Below the pieces are notes generated by a model. That model saw only the letters and a list, made by a program, of their open reading frames with translations, ran no database searches and was not told where the DNA came from. A stretch of 64,000 nt of DNA from Stieleria neptunia. Its GTDB lineage: Bacteria > Planctomycetota > Planctomycetia > Pirellulales > Pirellulaceae. The position numbers were made by a program, and so were the translations under genes. Below are positions 20,135-34,424 of the stretch, one piece after another (the stretch's first letter is position 1; every line of letters begins with the position of its first letter). The DNA lies in the NCBI RefSeq assembly GCF_007754155.1, contig NZ_CP037423.1, forward strand, positions 4,866,865 through 4,930,864. The letters run 5' to 3'.

Positions 20135-23854
<3,720 letters not shown>

Positions 23855-24048
23855 GCCGGGAGTATAAACGATTGCGGAGGCGGGGTTTAGGTTCAATGTT
23901 CCGCGAACCGGGACGGCTTGTCGCATATTTCCCTGTGCGTTTAGCTTGACGCGCATTCTGAACCCGCATTTAGCCGCCCCAAACGCATTCGCGAACCGCC
24001 CCGGAATCGCGTCACCACTTGGGGTTCGCGGATGATGCCCGGCAGCGT
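23855..24048 (-). promoter_or_regulatory. CRISPR leader
   Basis: The 194 bp between the cas2 stop and the first repeat contain no gene. On the minus strand a TATACT motif lies about 10 bp before the first repeat, but no good -35 is correctly spaced. Three variants of a GTTCGCGG/CCGCGAAC motif in both orientations could be binding sites for leader factors. Confidence 0.7.
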
Positions 24049-26079: not shown

Positions 26080-26583
26080 TCAGGTGTTGTTCCGGAAACG
26101 GATATTTCCGGGATTGACGTCGGCGATGTAGATCCCGAAGGACTCAAATTCGGCCAAGATTTCTTGGACAACCGGCCAATTCTCTTCAAAGTCTTCGCAC
26201 TTCTGCTCCCGCCAATCCCGCCAGACTTCAGGCGTGTAATCCGGCGGCCGGTCCAAATACGCCCCGCCAAAGTCCAAACAAAACGGGGGGCTGACGATGG
26301 TCATCTCGATGGCGAGTAAATCGTCGTCGAAATGAACGAGAATAGGAACACGGAGGCCCTGTACATGGGTGATTTCTAGATCTGACAATCGCAGATAGAC
26401 ATCGCGTTCACGAAAATAGGCATTCGAGCGTTCGTGAAATTTCACAGCGACGTGTTGCTGGGATAGATTAGAGCAGACGACTACGCTACCCTGCGTGCCC
26501 TGGCCAAGGCCGGACACCACGATCAATTTTCGAAGTTCCGTGTACGTCTTCAAACGCGATTCGATTGACTCAGGAAGATCCAT
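26080..26583 (-). CDS. Small protein kinase-like protein inserted in the cas operon
   Basis: 167 residues from the ATG at 26583. It has kinase-fold signatures: glycine-rich loop GLGQGTQGSVVV, a putative ATP lysine in HVAVKFHER, a glutamate in YFRERDVYLRL, the hinge-like DDDLLAIEMTIVSPPFCLDF and a shortened catalytic loop DVNPGN (Asp...Asn) near the C-terminus. The IEM-x-IV-x-PP...LDFG-x-YLDRPPDY block marks a family of small bacterial kinase-like proteins of unknown role. The C-lobe is cut short right after the catalytic loop. The open frame continues upstream, but that part is Ser/Pro-rich and antisense to a more convincing plus-strand gene. It is not a known cas gene. Confidence 0.75.
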   Translation of the reverse strand: MDLPESIESRLKTYTELRKLIVVSGLGQGTQGSVVVCSNLSQQHVAVKFHERSNAYFRERDVYLRLSDLEITHVQGLRVPILVHFDDDLLAIEMTIVSPPFCLDFGGAYLDRPPDYTPEVWRDWREQKCEDFEENWPVVQEILAEFESFGIYIADVNPGNIRFRNNT

Positions 26584-26590
26584 GATCTCG

Positions 26591-26830
26591 ATGCCTAAGA
26601 CTTTTTCGGCTGACGTCGAGCTGTACCTGAAGATGAATGGAAGCCGGTATGAATTGGGACATTTGGGACCTGGATTTGCGTTACTTGCCGAGCAAGAATC
26701 GGTAGGCGAAGGGATCGGGGAAATTGAAATGATCATCGATGGAAAGGCAACTCGACTCGAGATTCGGGTCACAGCCCCGCCGTCCGCGGAAAGCCGGCGA
26801 TTTGAATTCGAATCGGCATCGTCTGAGTAA
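26591..26830 (+). CDS. Small hypothetical protein, divergent partner of the kinase-like gene
   Basis: 79 residues on the strand opposite to all cas genes. The sequence looks like a genuine small beta-rich protein: VELYLKMNGSRYELGHLGPG, then FALLAEQE and GEIEMIIDGKATRLEIRV. The antisense frame over the same bases is low-complexity and unlike protein. Small proteins of this pattern are, to my recollection, found beside kinase-like genes of the same type. Its ATG is only 7 bp from the divergent kinase ATG, which leaves no room for separate promoters between them, and its stop is 1 bp from the convergent stop of the Cas11-nuclease gene. Function unknown. Confidence 0.6.
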   Translation: MPKTFSADVELYLKMNGSRYELGHLGPGFALLAEQESVGEGIGEIEMIIDGKATRLEIRVTAPPSAESRRFEFESASSE

Positions 26831-26831
26831 T

Positions 26832-27659
26832 CTACTGGGGATTCTTGGAATCTATCCAGGAAATCCAAGTCTGAATTTTTTCCAGTAGCTGGTCCACCTG
26901 AACTTGTGATTGCAATTCGTCGGGTGTCACATCGAGCAAGGTGAATTTGGTAAGACTTACAGGATACGTATCCCCCGTTGCCGCAACCAAGTCACGAAAT
27001 TCCTTGCCACCTAGACCGCGTGTCAATCGCTTCAACTTCCAGCGCCAATTCTTGTGATAGCGAACGTCGTCCAGCAGTCCTGTGTACTCTATCAGCAGGC
27101 GGAAACCGAATCGTTCGATAGTGAAATCTGGCTCGACTTGTTTTTTTTCACCATCGGGATCGGACAGTTTTATTGGGACATTCAACGGTTCTTCGTAGCA
27201 ATATTTGACACCGTTTTGGAAAAGTAGATCAGCAATCGTCCGTTCGCCCAGGCTCTTCACGATTGTTCCATCGCTGCTCTTGTAACGCCCGTTTTTGTAA
27301 CGACCGACAACCACGCCGCACTGGTGAAAATATCCAAGCTGGAACTCAGCCTTCCCCTTCAATGTCAGCACTGACGGCAAGCGATCGATCTGTCCGTACG
27401 TGCGAATCAATGCAGCACGCAAATCATATCGATGCTTACGAACGGGCAAACGCCTCAAACGCTTCATCGCAATGTCACAAACAGTCGGGAGCACCCGAGC
27501 GGGACAATCCGTAGCGGCTGAAAAATAACGTGATGAAAACGTCGAATTCAAATCTGGTGAATCCAGATCTTGGATCTGTTGAAAAAGAGCCATCAGCCTT
27601 CCAGCGTGGTAGGCCGACGAACTATGAAATTCATTCAGTCCGACATGCTTGGTGTTCAT
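26832..27659 (-). CDS. Cas11c-like domain fused to PD-(D/E)XK nuclease-like domain
   Basis: 275 residues. Residues about 15-116 align with the last 115 residues of the Cas8c encoded upstream: AYHAGRL against AYQIGRL, then [16 protein letters not shown] against [24 protein letters not shown] against IQRFPSNL, and LGYFHQ against LGFYQQ. In type I-C that Cas8c region is the small subunit (Cas11c). After a basic linker ([10 protein letters not shown]) comes a PD-(D/E)XK-type domain: Glu139 in [13 protein letters not shown], Asp178 in [11 protein letters not shown], and Glu191 in LLIEYTG, with a lysine-rich helix following. This resembles nuclease domains attached to UvrD/helicase-IV-like proteins. 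Its ATG overlaps the cas7 stop by 4 bp (ATGA), so it is translationally coupled to Cascade. The combination is not a standard cas gene. Confidence 0.85.
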
Positions 27660-28591
27660 ACCCACTCCTCCACGTTGACGCCAGAAGGCAAATCGATGTC
27701 ATCGACGACAATTTGATAGTCACTTGCGTTTCGAGGCGGTCGACTGCCTTCGATTGACTCTGCCCAACCTCCGATTGGTTGAATCCCTTCGCCGACTGAA
27801 ACTTCGACTCGTCGAAACAACTCGTCGGCGCGGGCCGAACCTAGCTTTGAATCATGTCTGAACGCGATACACCGAACCGGACGCATGTTTGCACGTGCCG
27901 CGCTACGGTCGATCTCAAACATTTGTGAAAGCGATTGCTTCAGCAGTTCCAAATCCTCCTCGCTGAATCCGGTTCTGTCTGCGAGATGCGGACTGACATA
28001 CATGTGCACACGATACAATCCGTAGGGGACTGTAAATTTCCGGCCCATCGTGCGGTTGCCGCCCTTTTGCTTTTCCGCCTCTTTTTCGGTAGTCACCGCA
28101 CATCGCGTCACTGCAAATTCCTGGGGAACCACCGGATGAATGCTACGGGCAATCCCCAGTTGAACTGGCCCACGGACTTGTCCGCAATTGATGTCCGTGG
28201 TCATCACGGCTCCGAAAGTGCGAATGTCGAAAAAATTGTGGCACATCCACTCTGTCAATTCCTGTTGCTTTTCCTTAGCAGACGACAATCGGTTCCGGTC
28301 TTTCTTCGCGACCTTCGGCGCAACGGCCTCCCACGCAAGCGCATGTTGATTGTTCAGGACAGCACGCTCCTTCACGTAGATTTCATAGGGCGGCTGGCAC
28401 TCCTTCAGCAGTCCAACAAAGTTGCGGATCTTGCGTTTTAGACATACATCCGTAACCAGCCCCTGCCCTGTCTCCGGATCAACACGCGGCATGTTTCCCG
28501 CGTCGGGGTCTCCGTTGGGATTCCCATCCGTAATGTCAAAGAAGAAAACAATGTCGTAGCGATTGGTGATCGGTGTGGATGGTTTGTTCAT
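27656..28591 (-). CDS. cas7: Type I-C Cascade backbone subunit Cas7 (Csd2)
   Basis: 311 residues. Starts [20 protein letters not shown], the Csd2 RRM-like strand and loop, followed by [36 protein letters not shown] and [14 protein letters not shown]. Multiple copies coat the crRNA spacer. A GGAG site lies about 8 nt before the ATG. It follows cas8c after 51 bp, and its stop is overlapped by the next gene. Confidence 0.97.
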
Positions 28592-30500: not shown

Positions 30501-31166
30501 TCAGGCCCCCGTGTGATTCGATTTTTGCTGGCGAATCGGTGAAAACTCCGGCACTTCGATGATTCCATGCCGCATCACGGCGTGGAAAAAATGAGGTGTC
30601 ATCGAGTTTTCATAGTCGATGTCATGCAACATCATCCCAAAGTCGTGCTCAGGAATCGTCGCATAAGCACCTTCAGGGATTTCATCGACCCATTGAAGGT
30701 CAGCTTCGCATTCTCGAGTTCCAAGATAGTACCGGTGAAAGCATTGCCCCTTCTTCAGGCGTCGCTCAAACATTGCGGCGTGCTTACCGGGACCGTCGGA
30801 TCCGCCGATCACCTCAAATTCAGCCTCGATACCGTAGCAGACGTCACGCAAATACATCGCTGCTCGTTGCTGCCGGTCCGATTCGATGAACGTTGCAAGC
30901 GGACCGCCGTTAACTCTCGCGGAGTTGGCTGTTCGCTCCGCAATCTTGGAAGACAGTTCGTTTCGACGAAGACTTAACCGTCGAATCGGGTTGAGTACAT
31001 GGATACGCCGAATCTTCCATCGAATTTCTGGCTTCCAGTAGCACCCCTCGCAGAGTGCACGCGCGGCAGACGGAGTGATGCAATCGTAGCTATCACGCTC
31101 GACACGGGTCTCTGGTCGGCTGAAGAGTGCCAGCGGACCTTTGGCCAGAATCTTAAATCCGAACAC
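30501..31166 (-). CDS. cas5c: Type I-C Cas5c (Csd5), pre-crRNA endonuclease and Cascade subunit
   Basis: 221 residues. Starts with FKILAKGPLALFSRPETRVE, the Cas5c N-terminus, then SYDCITPSAARALCEGCYWKPE with the conserved aromatic/lysine region used for RNA cleavage, and C-terminal FERRLKKGQCFHRYYLGTRE. In I-C this subunit replaces Cas6, cutting the repeat below its hairpin and staying on the 11-nt 5' handle. The start is GTG with a strong GAGGTGA site 5 nt upstream. 238 bp of apparently non-coding sequence separate it from the tRNA gene upstream. Confidence 0.96.
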   Translation of the reverse strand: MFGFKILAKGPLALFSRPETRVERDSYDCITPSAARALCEGCYWKPEIRWKIRRIHVLNPIRRLSLRRNELSSKIAERTANSARVNGGPLATFIESDRQQRAAMYLRDVCYGIEAEFEVIGGSDGPGKHAAMFERRLKKGQCFHRYYLGTRECEADLQWVDEIPEGAYATIPEHDFGMMLHDIDYENSMTPHFFHAVMRHGIIEVPEFSPIRQQKSNHTGA

Positions 31167-31403
31167 AGAATCACCTCATTGGGGTTCGAAGAAACATGAC
31201 ACGCGGGCGACATGACGGCCGCGCTGGGGAAGTTTTCAATTCGAATCCACTTCGAACCGTTTGAGGGATCGAAGACATCACGAAACAGCTTTTGTATTTG
31301 ATAGGCGTGCCGTTCAAACGCCACGTACAAACCCAAAGCTGCAATAGCCAGTAGTGCCCTACGTTGGCTGTTGACGCGATTTTTTTCGGTGCGATAATAA
31401 GCG

Positions 31404-31488
31404 TGCCCAGAACGGGATTCGAACCCGTAAGTCCGTGCGAGACGGTAGTTTTGGAAACCACTGCGTTTGCCAATTTCGCCACCTGGGC
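31404..31488 (-). tRNA. Class II tRNA with leucine-type body and apparent CCA anticodon
   Basis: 85 nt that fold as a tRNA. The acceptor GCCCAGG pairs with TCTGGGC with A73 as discriminator and no encoded CCA end. The D region is TGGCGAAATTGGCAAACGCA, the anticodon stem-loop GTGGT-TTCCAAA-ACTAC, the variable arm is long with CCGT/ACGG pairing, and the T arm is ACGGG-TTCGAAT-CCCGT. The body is closest to bacterial tRNA-Leu(CAA), but the middle anticodon base is C, giving CCA, which would read the Trp codon UGG. A normal tRNA-Trp has no long variable arm. It may be a diverged leucine tRNA, a missense-type tRNA or a pseudo-tRNA. It lies between cas3 and cas5c, in the direction of the cas genes. 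Confidence 0.85.
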
Positions 31489-31523
31489 CGAGTGCCAATC
31501 GCTACCACTGTTGGCACTCTTAT

Positions 31524-31552
31524 TTTTTATCGTCACTGAACCTTTCGGTCAA
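31524..31552 (-). promoter_or_regulatory. Sigma-70 promoter for the tRNA and probably cas5c-cas2
   Basis: On the minus strand TTGACC (31552-31547) and TAAAAA (31529-31524) are separated by exactly 17 bp. The predicted start near 31517 is about 29 nt before the tRNA. No other convincing promoter was seen between here and cas5c, so the cas operon may share this transcript. Confidence 0.65.
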
Positions 31553-31557
31553 TATGC

Positions 31558-31595
31558 TTTTCACTGAAGGCACATTTTTAATCAACAAGCTGGAA
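31558..31595 (-). promoter_or_regulatory. Putative self-target (protospacer with TTC PAM) of the crRNA-like guide
   Basis: On the minus strand TTC (31595-31593) is followed by CAGCTTGTTGATTAAAAATG (from 31592 downward). The first 11 nt and 17 of the first 19 equal the sequence right after the degenerate repeat at 31663-31694. TTC is the type I-C PAM and sits on the correct side. The site ends 5 bp before the -35 of the tRNA/cas promoter and covers the region just upstream of the plus-strand ribosome-binding site at 31594-31600. Confidence 0.75.
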
Positions 31596-31602
31596 GGAGG
31601 AC

Positions 31603-31725
31603 ATGCGTTTCTGGTATTTGGACTGGCGACTCGTATTGGTTTGGCTGACACTCAATGGCAACGTCGTGGACTTTGGGTTCGCGTGGATTGAAACCAGCTT
31701 GTTGAATAAACATTCGATTTGGTGA
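31603..31725 (+). CDS. Possible CreT-like mini-ORF, 40 codons, UGG-rich
   Basis: ATG at 31603 follows a perfect AAGGAGG (31594-31600) with only 2 nt between. The 40-residue product starts MRFWYLDWRLVLVWLTL and has five Trp codons (positions 4, 8, 14, 28 and 40). The ORF overlaps the degenerate CRISPR repeat and the start of its guide. A weak plus-strand promoter (TCGTCA at 31530, TATGCT at 31553, 17 bp apart) lies upstream. CreT toxins of CRISPR-repressed toxin-antitoxin modules are very small transcripts with strong ribosome-binding sites. The ORF may equally be non-functional. Confidence 0.4.
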   Translation: MRFWYLDWRLVLVWLTLNGNVVDFGFAWIETSLLNKHSIW

Positions 31726-31765
31726 CTCGGGGCGGCGGCTTGTCCGTCGCCCTGAGCTTTTCTGT
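31663..31765 (+). ncRNA. CreA/CreR-like crRNA-like RNA: degenerate repeat, guide and hairpin end
   Basis: Positions 31663-31694 are exactly one repeat long (32 bp), match the array repeat at 24 of 32 positions, and are identical over the last 15 (CGCGTGGATTGAAAC), which include the whole 5' handle. The guide would be 31695 to about 31728. It is followed by a 9-bp hairpin, GGGCGGCGG-CTTGT-CCGTCGCCC (31730-31752), and a TTTTCTGTT tail, which resembles a terminator. Only one repeat copy is present, so this is not an array. The strand is opposite to the array and the cas genes. The internal repeat stem is largely lost, as is typical of degenerate CreA repeats. No clear promoter was seen close upstream. 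Confidence 0.7.
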
Positions 31766-31777
31766 TCGCGATGAGAC

Positions 31778-34096
31778 TCATTGAACCAACAGCTCAGGGG
31801 ACATACCGATTGCATCCCGACGCAACCCGAGCGTGAGGTCGTAGGCACGAGGGTTACAGAGCACCCATCGCCCGTGGCATTCCATCACGGTCGTGTTGTC
31901 GAGGAGTTTGCGATGGTCGAATTCGTAAATGCCCACGCTAAACCGTTGCGATTTTCGATCCCAGTCGCGGATCCAACTCGCACTCAGCTTCTCCGGCGGC
32001 ATCCTCAAAAGCGATTTGATTAATTTCTCGCCTTTTTCATACGGAACGACGATTGGTGTTTGGGTGGATTGAATAAGCCGATACCGCTGTGCCGCTGTAG
32101 CAAATTGGAAGGCGAGTTGGCGCCGTCGGTCATCGCCGTCCAAGCATTCCATCACCGACATCCCGCCGAGACCGTGGTCCCATCCTTTTCCGTCTTCGCC
32201 TCCACGGTCCCAAAACAGCAAGCGAAAGTAGTGGTCGATCGCTTGCGGTGAAAGCAAGTCCTCCCGATAGCGATCAGCAATTTGACGAAACATGGCGATA
32301 CCGTCACTTACCATGTCGATCGCTCGATAAGTCTTGCGATCGTACTCAAACACCCATACATCACCGCTGGAACGCTTCCCCTCTCGATTGCAACGGCCAG
32401 CTGCCTGGGCGATCGAGTCGAGGCCGGCTTCGGCCCGGTACACCACGGGAAAGTCGACATCCACTCCAGCTTCCATCACCGTCGTGCTAACCACACGACA
32501 TTGTTCCCCCTGACTCAGGCATCGACGTATCTCGGCCACGATCTGTTCACGATGGGCGGCGCAGAGATTTGCTGAAAGATGAATCGCTTGGGGGAGGTCG
32601 GCTGCTAAGTCAGCCGCATGTCGTCGCGTGTTAACGATGCACAAGACTTGATGATGCGACGCAAGCCGATGAACCAGTTCATCGTTCTCCAAGCGTCCCG
32701 CTATCTTCACACGATTGCGTTTTAGTCGCTGATGCAACGTTGTAGGGTCACTGATAATGGGACGAACTGCCTTAAGTCCGATCGGAAAGCTTTCACGGAA
32801 TTGAATCGCTGGCTGCGTCGCACTGCACAAGACGATTGAGCAGCCATAGTTTCGAACTAGTTCGGTCAGAACGGCTAGTGTCGGATGAAGCAAACCCACC
32901 GGCAACATCTGCACTTCATCGAAAACAATCACCGACCCGGCAAGGTGATGCAGTTTTCGACAACGCGATGGCTTCGCGGCGAATAGTGATTCGAGCAATT
33001 GAACGTTTGTGGTCACAATCAGCGGTGCTGAATAATTTTCCGATGCCAATCGCTGGGCCGGAGTCGATTTCAATTGGTCTTCAGGATCAATTGCACTGTG
33101 ATGTTCGAGAACTTCTGAATTGCCAAATATCTTCCGAAATTCGTTTGATGTCTGTTCAATGATTGTTGTCAATGGAATCGCGTAGACAACGCGACGTAAA
33201 CCGTGTTCCGCTGCATGACGAAGAGCAAACGCCATCGATGCCAAGGTCTTTCCACCACCAGTCGGAACATGAAGGCTGAAAAATCCTTTTCGGTCTTCTG
33301 CCGCGTTTCTGCAGGCGCTCAACACTTCTCGGCGAATGGAATTCACTGCGCCTTCTGTTCGCAACTGCCGCAAGTGCTTGTCTAACTTCTCCGTAAACGC
33401 GGCGGGATCGAACTGCTTCGAAATGCGACCACCAGCCCCTTCCGAGTAAAAACGCTCGGTCCACAGATAATCCGCATCCACCAGGGATGAAAAAATCATT
33501 CGTGAGAGCATTGATGCCGAAAAGGCGCCACTCCCTTCGCTGGGTTTGATTTTCGGTGACTGTAGTCGCCGGGACCGAGTGGCGCACGCCAAAACGCTTG
33601 CATCGGTTGGCTCGATATATTTTTCAGTTAAACGATGCCGAAGATTTCCGCGACCCTTCGTCGTCCAGTCTGGTAATCCTGCATGGTGCCCCGCGATCGC
33701 GTAGGAAAGCAAACGCCCCAAACCGCCCATCGAATCCGCAACCCTGGCTCCTGCCGTCGAATGATCGACAGTTTGCCCACCTGCGTTGTCATCGGGAAAC
33801 TGTTCCGCTAGTGCACTATCGACGGGTTCCGCTTTGGTATGTTTGATGTGGTCCTGAAAAGCAGTGGACGCTTTACCGAGGTCATGCAACCAACCTGCCA
33901 TTTCTCCCATCTCTCGTGCGCAAAAGTAAGACGCGTTGTCACCTGCTCCCGGCGTGACCTCATCGCCGATAGCTACATTCCGCATGTGCTGCTCTAGCGT
34001 CTCCCACTCTTCTGGTGGGCGGCCCGGGAGGCTGTGGGCGTAGAAAACTCTTGGTGGATCAGGGGAGGATCCAGCGGCGGGGTCCGGCGTAGTCAT
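31778..34096 (-). CDS. cas3: CRISPR-associated helicase-nuclease Cas3, type I-C
   Basis: About 772 residues. N-terminal HD nuclease: YAHSLPG, and WLHDLGKAS with the HD pair, further metal ligands in IAGHHAGLPDW. Superfamily-2 helicase: Walker A VPTGGGKTLASMAF, DExH-type box VIVFDEVQMLP, motif III LCSATQPAI, and C-terminal RecA motifs VVSTTVMEAGVDVDF and QAAGRCNREG. Recruited by Cascade, it nicks and degrades target DNA. The ATG at 34096 is used; a GTG at 34135 would add 13 residues. Unlike usual I-C operons, 611 bp with a tRNA and a crRNA-like element separate it from cas5c. Confidence 0.97.
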   Translation of the reverse strand: MTTPDPAAGSSPDPPRVFYAHSLPGRPPEEWETLEQHMRNVAIGDEVTPGAGDNASYFCAREMGEMAGWLHDLGKASTAFQDHIKHTKAEPVDSALAEQFPDDNAGGQTVDHSTAGARVADSMGGLGRLLSYAIAGHHAGLPDWTTKGRGNLRHRLTEKYIEPTDASVLACATRSRRLQSPKIKPSEGSGAFSASMLSRMIFSSLVDADYLWTERFYSEGAGGRISKQFDPAAFTEKLDKHLRQLRTEGAVNSIRREVLSACRNAAEDRKGFFSLHVPTGGGKTLASMAFALRHAAEHGLRRVVYAIPLTTIIEQTSNEFRKIFGNSEVLEHHSAIDPEDQLKSTPAQRLASENYSAPLIVTTNVQLLESLFAAKPSRCRKLHHLAGSVIVFDEVQMLPVGLLHPTLAVLTELVRNYGCSIVLCSATQPAIQFRESFPIGLKAVRPIISDPTTLHQRLKRNRVKIAGRLENDELVHRLASHHQVLCIVNTRRHAADLAADLPQAIHLSANLCAAHREQIVAEIRRCLSQGEQCRVVSTTVMEAGVDVDFPVVYRAEAGLDSIAQAAGRCNREGKRSSGDVWVFEYDRKTYRAIDMVSDGIAMFRQIADRYREDLLSPQAIDHYFRLLFWDRGGEDGKGWDHGLGGMSVMECLDGDDRRRQLAFQFATAAQRYRLIQSTQTPIVVPYEKGEKLIKSLLRMPPEKLSASWIRDWDRKSQRFSVGIYEFDHRKLLDNTTVMECHGRWVLCNPRAYDLTLGLRRDAIGMSPELLVQ

Positions 34097-34424
34097 CCCG
34101 AAAAGAATAACAATCTTCGTGACACGTTTGGTCACGGCGCACCACTTTTTTTGAAATCGGTCGCCGCGCAGTCGCGGATCTACCGTGCCCTCGGTTTATT
34201 AGGCGCCAACACTGCCTTCGGTCGTGCGATCGCACGCGATGTCATTGTGCTCGTCAATGGGCGGAACATTCGGCGCTGGAGGATCGGCGCAGGAGAGACG
34301 AGCGGGGACCGGACGGCTCGCTCCGTTCCGATCACTCCGTTCAAGCCAACCGAGATGGCTCTGGGCCGAGGACGCTGCAACGCGCTGCGACCCCGTCCGG
34401 GGTCGAGGAGAGGATTTTGGGGGC

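What the first reader, a model, noticed from the sequence alone, without database searches (positions are those of the whole stretch)
31558..31765. A CreA/CreR-like guide inside a type I-C cas locus, with its own PAM-flanked target 70 bp away
A lone degenerate repeat (31663-31694) has the exact repeat length and an identical 15-nt 3' end including the crRNA handle. The sequence right after it starts CAGCTTGTTGA. That 11-mer recurs on the other strand at 31592-31582, directly after TTC, the type I-C PAM, and matching continues to 17 of the first 19 positions. The first mismatch is at position 12, one of the every-sixth positions that type I guides do not read. The target abuts the -35 of a TTGACC-17-TAAAAA promoter facing the tRNA and cas5c, and overlaps the upstream region of a plus-strand mini-ORF. 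A hairpin and T-rich tract would end the RNA. Seed-only pairing next to a promoter is how known CreA (antitoxin) and CreR (cas autorepressor) RNAs direct Cascade to repress rather than cleave. I know this architecture mainly from type I-B and some other subtypes; a I-C planctomycete case would be new to me.
Basis: partly seen in the sequence, partly recalled or inferred. Interest (0 to 1): 0.95.

Follow-up and report, generated by a model that had tools for sequence, protein, structure and literature searches.

The report
Self-repressing guide in type I-C CRISPR
A lone CRISPR-repeat-like gene between cas3 and cas5c carries a guide that matches, next to the correct PAM, a site beside the likely promoter of an odd tRNA gene and the cas genes, so this type I-C CRISPR system would use its own guide complex to turn itself down; 14 distinct guide-target pairs of this kind turned up in type I-C loci from four bacterial phyla.

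Summary
A 32-nt solo repeat (31663-31694, +) keeps the crRNA handle and an 8-bp stem. Its guide matches a TTC-flanked site (31592-31559, -) at 17 of the first 19 positions; PAM plus seed is unique in the 10.98-Mb genome. In a same-genus genome whose cas locus is about 97% identical, the target window falls to 75%. There, guide and target changed together at seed positions 2, 7 and 9, and mismatch in the seed only at position 6, which Cascade does not read. Similar pairs occur in 13 of 33 distinct cas3-cas5c gaps (simulated sets: mean 0.11, maximum 1), plus one outside a gap, in four phyla. Best reading: a CreR-type RNA that directs Cascade to repress the tRNA-cas5c-to-cas1 unit; repression is inferred. 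The mini-ORF is absent in the relative. The "tRNA-Trp" in the unit is class II, with a leucine-type body and a Trp anticodon, seen only here and in that relative. A bolder, untested reading makes it a CRISPR-guarded mistranslating toxin. One review lists CreR for I-B, I-E and V-A; I found no I-C report, but key papers were not held.

The parts
31663..31694 (+). solo degenerate CRISPR repeat (psi-R); 32 nt, 8-bp stem next to an intact 11-nt handle
31684..31694 (+). predicted crRNA 5' handle TGGATTGAAAC, identical to array repeats
31695..31725 (+). guide; positions 1-11 are the seed
31726..31756 (+). terminator-like hairpin, 13 pairs, followed by CTTTTCTGTT
31593..31595 (-). PAM TTC
31559..31592 (-). 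34-nt protospacer (target; length assumed from the array spacers); 17 of the first 19 positions match the guide
31547..31552 (-). -35 TTGACC of the likely promoter facing the tRNA and cas5c
   Evidence: alignment; footprint; not listed by the consensus scan
31524..31529 (-). -10 TAAAAA, 17 bp from the -35
31490..31519 (.). inverted repeat GAGTGCCAA-N12-TTGGCACTC between the predicted start site and the tRNA; on + it is followed by a T-rich stretch
   Evidence: by eye
31403..31488 (-). class II tRNA with a leucine-type body and anticodon CCA (ARAGORN: tRNA-Trp)
31603..31725 (+). mini-ORF, 40 aa, five Trp codons, strong Shine-Dalgarno; start absent in G005
30501..31166 (-). cas5c, first protein gene of the predicted regulated unit
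   Evidence: PF09704
28643..30568 (-). cas8c (Csd1)
   Evidence: PF09709
27656..28591 (-). cas7c
   Evidence: PF05107
25381..26058 (-). cas4
   Evidence: PF01930
24346..25371 (-). cas1
   Evidence: PF01867
31778..34135 (-). cas3, upstream of the guide gene and outside the unit read from the target promoter
20135..23861 (-). CRISPR array, 56 copies of the repeat handle

Best explanation
The 31663-31756 element is a crRNA-like gene whose guide seed matches a TTC-flanked site 6 bp upstream of the likely promoter of the tRNA-cas5c-cas8c-cas7c-cas4-cas1 unit, and it is predicted to load into the type I-C Cascade and repress that promoter, as CreR RNAs do in other subtypes. Shown by sequence: handle, stem, terminator-like hairpin, PAM, seed match, seed-target covariation with a relative, and the same arrangement with positions 6 and 12 unread in other I-C loci. 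Inferred: transcription of the RNA, trimming by Cas5c, loading, binding without Cas3 cleavage because pairing stops near position 19, and steric block of RNA polymerase at the upstream element and -35. The loop would then work as negative feedback. When array crRNAs or an anti-CRISPR protein take up Cascade, the promoter is freed and more Cascade is made. cas3 lies upstream of the element and would not be controlled by it.
For: Guide/target pair with TTC PAM and an unbroken run of 14 read positions. Target unique in the genome. Against G005, seed changes at 2, 7 and 9 are compensated in the target and the only seed mismatch is at 6; the 200-nt window holding the target is 75% identical and the one holding the guide 90%, while the other 50 windows of the cas locus average 97% (90.5-100). 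Survey: pairs in 13 of 33 distinct cas3-cas5c gaps over 140 nt, all with a run of at least 10 read positions and all with TTC although TTT and CTC were allowed; 100 simulated sets gave a mean of 0.11 and at most 1; of 111 windows downstream of the cas5c start, 4 (two of them the same locus) reached a run of 9 and none 10. In the earlier whole-locus scan (130 loci, 123 distinct; array handles not excluded) 18 loci had a hit with TTC against 3, 0, 0, 2, 3, 0 and 1 with seven control triplets. In the 13 pairs all ten read seed positions match (the scan required the first nine), position 6 matches in 4 of 13 and 12 in 3 of 13 (both left free by the scan), and 13-16 match 43 of 52 (Fisher p = 9e-5 for 13-16 against 12). 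Terminator-like hairpins follow 10 of 14 guides against 101 of 1400 random positions. A stem of at least 5 bp abuts the handle in 10 of 14 solo repeats. By eye, the target lies next to or across a -35/-10-like pair in L086, L172, L169 and L011, across the likely cas5c start codon in L004, and just before the ribosome-binding site in L131. The same seed rule (1-5 and 7-11 paired, 6 and 12 free, TTC PAM; one psi-repeat plus terminator in H. hispanica) is reported from experiments on haloarchaeal CreA (PMC8501985, passages).
Against: No RNA or expression data. No clear sigma-70 promoter for the guide RNA itself was found; the only consensus hit is on + at 31371-31398, about 290 bp upstream of the repeat, and shuffles average 0.7 such hits. 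The target lies upstream of the -35, unlike in the six relatives named above. In L107, L116 and L141 it lies at the end of cas3, about 170-345 bp from cas5c, with no promoter identified; L013, L083 and L096 are unclear. 20 of 33 gap loci show no pair, and L017 has a solo repeat with no matching target in 19 kb. Own stem is only moderately better than shuffles (0.027), and four of 14 solo repeats lack a 5-bp stem in the stretch tested.
Confidence: 0.85

Rival explanations
1. A CreTA-like addiction or alarm module: the regulated product that matters is the tRNA. Its leucine-type body would be charged with leucine and its CCA anticodon would put leucine at Trp (UGG) codons; Cascade plus the guide keep it silent.
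For: Class II body with the E. coli leucine identity elements named in PMC9976931 (A73, A15-U48, G18G19, A20a, D/T-loop contacts; passages; positions numbered by hand). It lacks the bacterial Trp set named there (G73, plus G2-C71, G3-C70, G4-C69 and the minor first and fifth pairs; section read). The genome already has a normal class I tRNA-Trp(CCA) and Leu tRNAs for all five anticodons. It is the first gene after the target promoter. All five arms pair with two G-U wobbles and Rfam gives 51.1 bits, inside the range of the genome's five class II Leu tRNAs (50.1-58.9). Natural tRNA-ProX mistranslators were toxic to E. coli (PMC10365949, passages).
Against: The other 12 distinct CreR-positive loci have no tRNA in the DNA held (ARAGORN over 130 loci), so the guide occurs without one elsewhere. 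Overall identity separates Leu and Trp only weakly (58 of 85 and 55 of 84 to two Leu tRNAs, 43-48 to the others, 45 of 73 to tRNA-Trp). Its A73, G1-C72 and CC anticodon would satisfy the archaeal (A. pernix) Trp rules, so Trp charging is not excluded. The free fold of the unmodified tRNA is not a cloverleaf. Own and G005 copies are too alike to show selection. Charging and toxicity untested.
Confidence: 0.15
2. A CreTA in which the plus-strand mini-ORF (31603-31725) is the toxin and the guide blocks its promoter.
For: Strong Shine-Dalgarno directly beside the PAM, 40 aa, five Trp codons, downstream of the target on the guide strand. L116 also has a tiny hydrophobic ORF that runs into its solo repeat.
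Against: Start codon and Shine-Dalgarno are absent in the G005 copy, which keeps the guide-target pair. No common small ORF among the 13 gaps listed. No Pfam match.
Confidence: 0.06
3. The bound complex acts mainly on the plus strand (limiting the guide's own transcription) or activates rather than represses the cas promoter, since the target lies upstream of the -35.
For: Target lies between the two diverging units and ends 6 bp before the -35. The one consensus promoter match of the region is on + upstream of the target.
Against: In six relatives the target sits on or just after promoter-like hexamers or at the cas5c start, where blocking is expected (by eye); known relatives repress (passages).
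Confidence: 0.1
4. A decayed array remnant whose spacer matches nearby DNA by chance.
For: The repeat is degenerate (24 of 32) and alone.
Against: Covariation with G005, TTC in all 13, skip-six pattern, simulated mean 0.11 against 13 observed.
Confidence: 0.02

Closest known systems
CreR (cas-regulating RNA): listed for I-B, I-E and V-A in PMC13131331 (passage); called widespread in 'Type I and Type V-A', with no mention of I-C, in PMC12737573 (passages)
   Same: crRNA-like RNA from repeat-like DNA in the cas locus, partial complementarity to the cas promoter region, predicted autorepression by the effector
   Different: Subtype I-C, where Cas5 processes crRNA (PMC10651486, passage); one repeat followed by a terminator-like hairpin; a tRNA gene lies between promoter and cas5c
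Haloarchaeal CreA of CreTA (type I-B; PMC8501985, passages)
   Same: Seed positions 1-5 and 7-11 paired, 6 and 12 free, TTC PAM; one psi-repeat and T-rich terminator in H. hispanica
   Different: No conserved creT mini-ORF here; bacterial type I-C
crRNA-like elements of Shmakov et al. 2023, Nucleic Acids Res. 51:8150 (recalled; paper not held; cited in PMC10651486)
   Same: As recalled: standalone repeats conserved in cas loci with spacers matching cas promoters
   Different: Whether type I-C members with these features are listed there could not be checked
RacrIC1, a phage-encoded solitary I-C repeat (PMC10651486, passages)
   Same: A lone type I-C repeat RNA outside an array
   Different: Phage-encoded inhibitor of CRISPR; here the element lies in the cas locus and has a guide with a target
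tRNA-ProX mistranslating tRNAs of Streptomyces (PMC10365949, passages)
   Same: A tRNA body of one amino acid with the anticodon of another
   Different: Leu-type body with Trp anticodon, beside cas genes; a partner synthetase was not sought

Membership tests
CreR | CRISPR-repeat-like element outside the array in the cas locus, with handle kept | tested here: met
CreR | Spacer with partial, seed-anchored complementarity to a PAM-flanked site | tested here: met
   17 of 19, TTC, unique in genome
CreR | Target in the promoter region of the cas operon | tested here: inconclusive
   6 bp upstream of a conserved TTGACC-17-TAAAAA that reads into tRNA and cas5c; start site not mapped, promoter weak by consensus
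CreR | Guide and target conserved or covarying in relatives | tested here: met
   G005 covariation; pairs in 13 of 33 gap loci
CreR | RNA made, processed and loaded; cas promoter repressed | not testable with these tools
   needs small-RNA sequencing and reporters
CreTA | Toxic small RNA or mini-ORF under the target promoter, conserved with the guide | tested here: not met
   mini-ORF start absent in G005, no common ORF in the other gaps; a tRNA as toxin is not covered by this test
CreTA | Guide needed for viability when Cascade is lost | not testable with these tools
   needs genetics
tRNA-Leu (body) | Class II fold with A73, A15-U48, G18G19, A20a | tested here: met
   against PMC9976931 passages (E. 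coli rules; numbered by hand)
tRNA-Trp, bacterial rules | CCA anticodon with G73 and, in B. subtilis, G2-C71, G3-C70, G4-C69 | tested here: not met
   only the anticodon fits (rules); archaeal rules (A73, G1-C72, CC) would fit
Type I-C CRISPR-Cas | cas3, cas5c, cas8c, cas7c, cas4, cas1 and I-C repeat | tested here: met
   cas2 not tested; I-C repeat form recalled

The most novel reading that the evidence does not exclude
In this lineage the CRISPR system has put a mistranslating tRNA under its own guide-controlled promoter. While Cascade is intact the guide keeps the leucine-type tRNA(CCA) silent. If Cascade is lost, blocked by an anti-CRISPR or drained by crRNAs, the tRNA is made, puts leucine at Trp codons, and poisons the cell or the infecting phage. 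This would be a CRISPR-guarded toxin that is a whole tRNA rather than a tRNA-sequestering RNA or a protein.
Probability: 0.14. Interest if true: 0.93.

Novelty: new variant of a known kind. Interest (0 to 1): 0.7.

Why it matters
It extends predicted RNA-guided self-repression of CRISPR to type I-C, with a simple rule for finding more (solo handle, TTC, seed that skips every sixth base) and 14 distinct examples in four phyla. The G005 comparison offers a natural pair in which guide and target were rewritten together in an otherwise nearly constant locus, a ready test of specificity. If the tRNA is functional, it would link CRISPR control to programmed mistranslation.

Tried and rejected
Chance or array remnant: rejected by covariation, control triplets and simulations. 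Mini-ORF as creT: start not conserved in G005, no Pfam match. A hidden gene between tRNA and cas5c (31399-31169, -): no homologue found, left open. The tRNA as a widespread part of CreR units: rejected; the DNA search found it in 2 of 296 genomes, the window's own and G005; no tRNA lies beside cas5c in the other loci; an exact pattern for Leu-type D arms with CCA matched 1 of 392 phylum genomes, the window's own, and 2 viral contigs, of which ARAGORN reads one as CCA. Target for the L017 guide: none in 19 kb.

Weak or dropped hits: L015 (run 9, handle 3 mismatches) and L138 (run 10, handle 3 mismatches) were not counted as pairs; matches inside the L141 array were ignored; L096 appears twice because its contig repeats itself; L001/L151 and L004/L101 are the same loci. 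In one search, L018, L020 and L151 were left out of 130 loci (two pieces of one hit, and a duplicate), leaving 127 rows. A duplicate check came last: 123 of 130 loci and 33 of 34 gap rows are distinct.

Literature: the listings of five searches of the open-licence library showed no report of CreR or CreTA in type I-C, and the passages I opened named none. Two further searches concerned mistranslating tRNAs. Many listed papers were not opened. The original CreR paper (recalled) was not looked up and Shmakov et al. 2023 is not held, so absence from print is not established.

Full report
What is there. Between cas3 (31778-34135, -) and cas5c (30501-31166, -) of a type I-C locus lies a gap of about 610 nt. 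On the plus strand it holds a solo repeat (31663-31694), a guide from 31695 and a 13-pair terminator-like hairpin (31726-31756). The solo repeat is 24 of 32 identical to the array repeat, keeps its last 15 bases, and still forms a stem of 8 pairs beside the handle, although three of the seven pairs it shares with the array stem have other bases (by eye). On the minus strand the guide's first 11 bases recur after TTC, and 17 of the first 19 positions match. PAM plus the ten read seed positions has one site in the genome.

Close relative. The same-genus genome G005 carries the same locus (Cas5c 99% identical). Over 52 windows of 200 nt, the one holding the target is 75% identical and the one holding the guide 90%; the other 50 average 97% (90.5-100). 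Guide positions 2, 6, 7, 9 and 31 differ. The target differs at 2, 6, 7, 9, 12, 18 and beyond. So 2, 7 and 9 are compensated, and the only seed mismatch is at 6. Four of the five guide differences fall in the 11-base seed (Fisher p = 0.023). The promoter hexamers TTGACC and TAAAAA are unchanged while 7 of 17 spacer bases differ. G006 (80% Cas5c identity) has a 21-nt cas3-cas5c gap, no solo handle upstream of cas5c with fewer than two mismatches, and no tRNA.

Survey. Of the 130 loci so held (123 distinct), 18 had a handle (up to 3 mismatches) with a TTC-flanked seed match within 700 nt, against 0 to 3 for each of seven control triplets. Restricting to loci with a cas3-cas5c gap over 140 nt (34 rows, 33 distinct), 13 distinct loci have a pair, all with a run of at least 10 read positions and all with TTC. 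Simulated sets gave a mean of 0.11 and a maximum of 1 in 100 runs. Windows downstream of the cas5c start gave 4 of 111 at run 9 and none at 10. A fourteenth pair lies about 900 nt upstream of cas5c in L096, before another open frame. The 14 are: in Planctomycetota the window, G005, Planctomycetales bacterium 10988 (L004/L101), G095 (L011), G132 (L013), Tautonia sociabilis (L083), G417 (L169) and G593 (L172); in Thermodesulfobacteriota Desulfonema magnum (L086) and a Desulfarculales MAG (L107); in Pseudomonadota a gammaproteobacterial MAG (L096), Halomonas sp. Y3 (L116) and Lysobacteraceae NML07-0707 (L141); in Bacillota a Lachnospiraceae MAG (L131). Names are from record titles or handles; phyla were looked up for four and are recalled for Halomonas, Lachnospiraceae and the Gammaproteobacteria; the G handles rest on their stated kinship. 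Twenty of the 33 gap loci show no pair, and L017 has a solo repeat without a target.

Reading rule. Over the 13 gap pairs, positions 1-5 and 7-11 match in 13 of 13; the scan required the first nine of these ten. Position 6 matches in 4 of 13 and 12 in 3 of 13, positions the scan left free, while 13-16 match in 43 of 52. That is the readout expected of a type I effector, and it is the rule reported from mutations for haloarchaeal CreA (PMC8501985, passages). Terminator-like hairpins follow 10 of 14 guides against 101 of 1400 random positions. Stems of 5 bp or more abut the handle in 10 of 14.

Mechanism. Most likely the RNA is trimmed at its handle by Cas5c, loaded into Cascade and brought to the target, where limited pairing holds the complex without cleavage and blocks the promoter. 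None of these steps was observed. By eye the target lies across or next to promoter-like hexamers in L086, L172, L169 and L011, across the likely start codon of cas5c in L004, and just before its ribosome-binding site in L131. In L107, L116 and L141 it lies at the end of cas3 with no promoter identified; L013, L083 and L096 are unclear. In the window it lies just upstream of the -35, so block by occluding the upstream contact is less certain. The controlled unit would be tRNA, cas5c, cas8c, cas7c, cas4 and cas1, not cas3.

The tRNA. ARAGORN calls 31403-31488 tRNA-Trp, but the body is class II with a long variable arm, as in the genome's Leu and Ser tRNAs and unlike its normal tRNA-Trp. Overall identity is highest to two Leu tRNAs (58 of 85 to UAA, 55 of 84 to CAA), but the other Leu tRNAs give 43-48 of 82-85, Ser-UGA 48 of 85 and tRNA-Trp 45 of 73, so identity alone is weak evidence. 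It has the E. coli leucine elements named in PMC9976931 (passages) and lacks the bacterial G73 of Trp, though archaeal Trp rules would fit (section read). The genome has a separate normal tRNA-Trp and Leu tRNAs for all five anticodons. All arms pair, though the free fold is not a cloverleaf. The DNA search found it in 2 of 296 genomes, this one and G005. By body it should take leucine and read UGG. Whether it is a toxin, a spare part or cargo is unknown.

Known kinds. One review lists CreR for I-B, I-E and V-A (PMC13131331, passage); another says Type I and Type V-A in general (PMC12737573, passages). I saw no I-C case in the listings, but key papers were not held. I therefore rate the finding a new variant of a known kind: an I-C CreR, found in four phyla, with an unusual tRNA in the regulated unit here.

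Noticed in passing
31403-31488 (-): Leucine-type class II tRNA with CCA anticodon beside the cas genes, although the genome has a normal tRNA-Trp and Leu tRNAs for all five anticodons.
   Followed up: yes
31455-31854, window against L182: The guide/target block is the fastest-changing part of an otherwise nearly constant cas locus, with guide changes concentrated in the seed.
   Followed up: partly
13 gap pairs, target positions 6 and 12: The unread position 6 of the target is A in 11 of 13 loci and position 12 is A in 9 of 13; no explanation.
   Followed up: no
26832-27665 (-): A 277-aa ORF after cas7c matches only the last fifth of the Csd1 (cas8c) profile, perhaps a separate small-subunit-like gene; the next ORF, 26080-26868, has no Pfam match.
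   Followed up: no
31371-31398 (+) and 31490-31519: A plus-strand promoter-like site and a hairpin with a T-rich tail (by eye) bracket the tRNA on its antisense strand, as if an antisense RNA of tRNA length were made.
   Followed up: no
L011 and L083, gaps before cas5c: Similar 75-78-aa ORFs (shared RLPYT...RKRGL by eye) lie between the guide target and cas5c; no Pfam match.
   Followed up: partly
L131, gap: A RelB-like antitoxin ORF (PF04221, 1.1e-9) lies between guide and target in a Lachnospiraceae I-C locus.
   Followed up: partly
L116, gap: A tiny hydrophobic ORF runs into the 5' part of the solo repeat in Halomonas sp. Y3, a possible CreTA-like toxin.
   Followed up: no
L194:1719-1806 (-): A viral contig with tail-like genes (by eye) carries another 88-nt tRNA with CCA anticodon and a Leu-like D arm.
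   Followed up: partly
G000:C1 583-596 kb and 7774-7781 kb: Two large tRNA arrays with many divergent tRNAs, including short CCA tRNAs.
   Followed up: no
L183 (G084): Solo repeat and hairpin upstream of cas5c whose guide has no matching target within 19 kb.
   Followed up: partly
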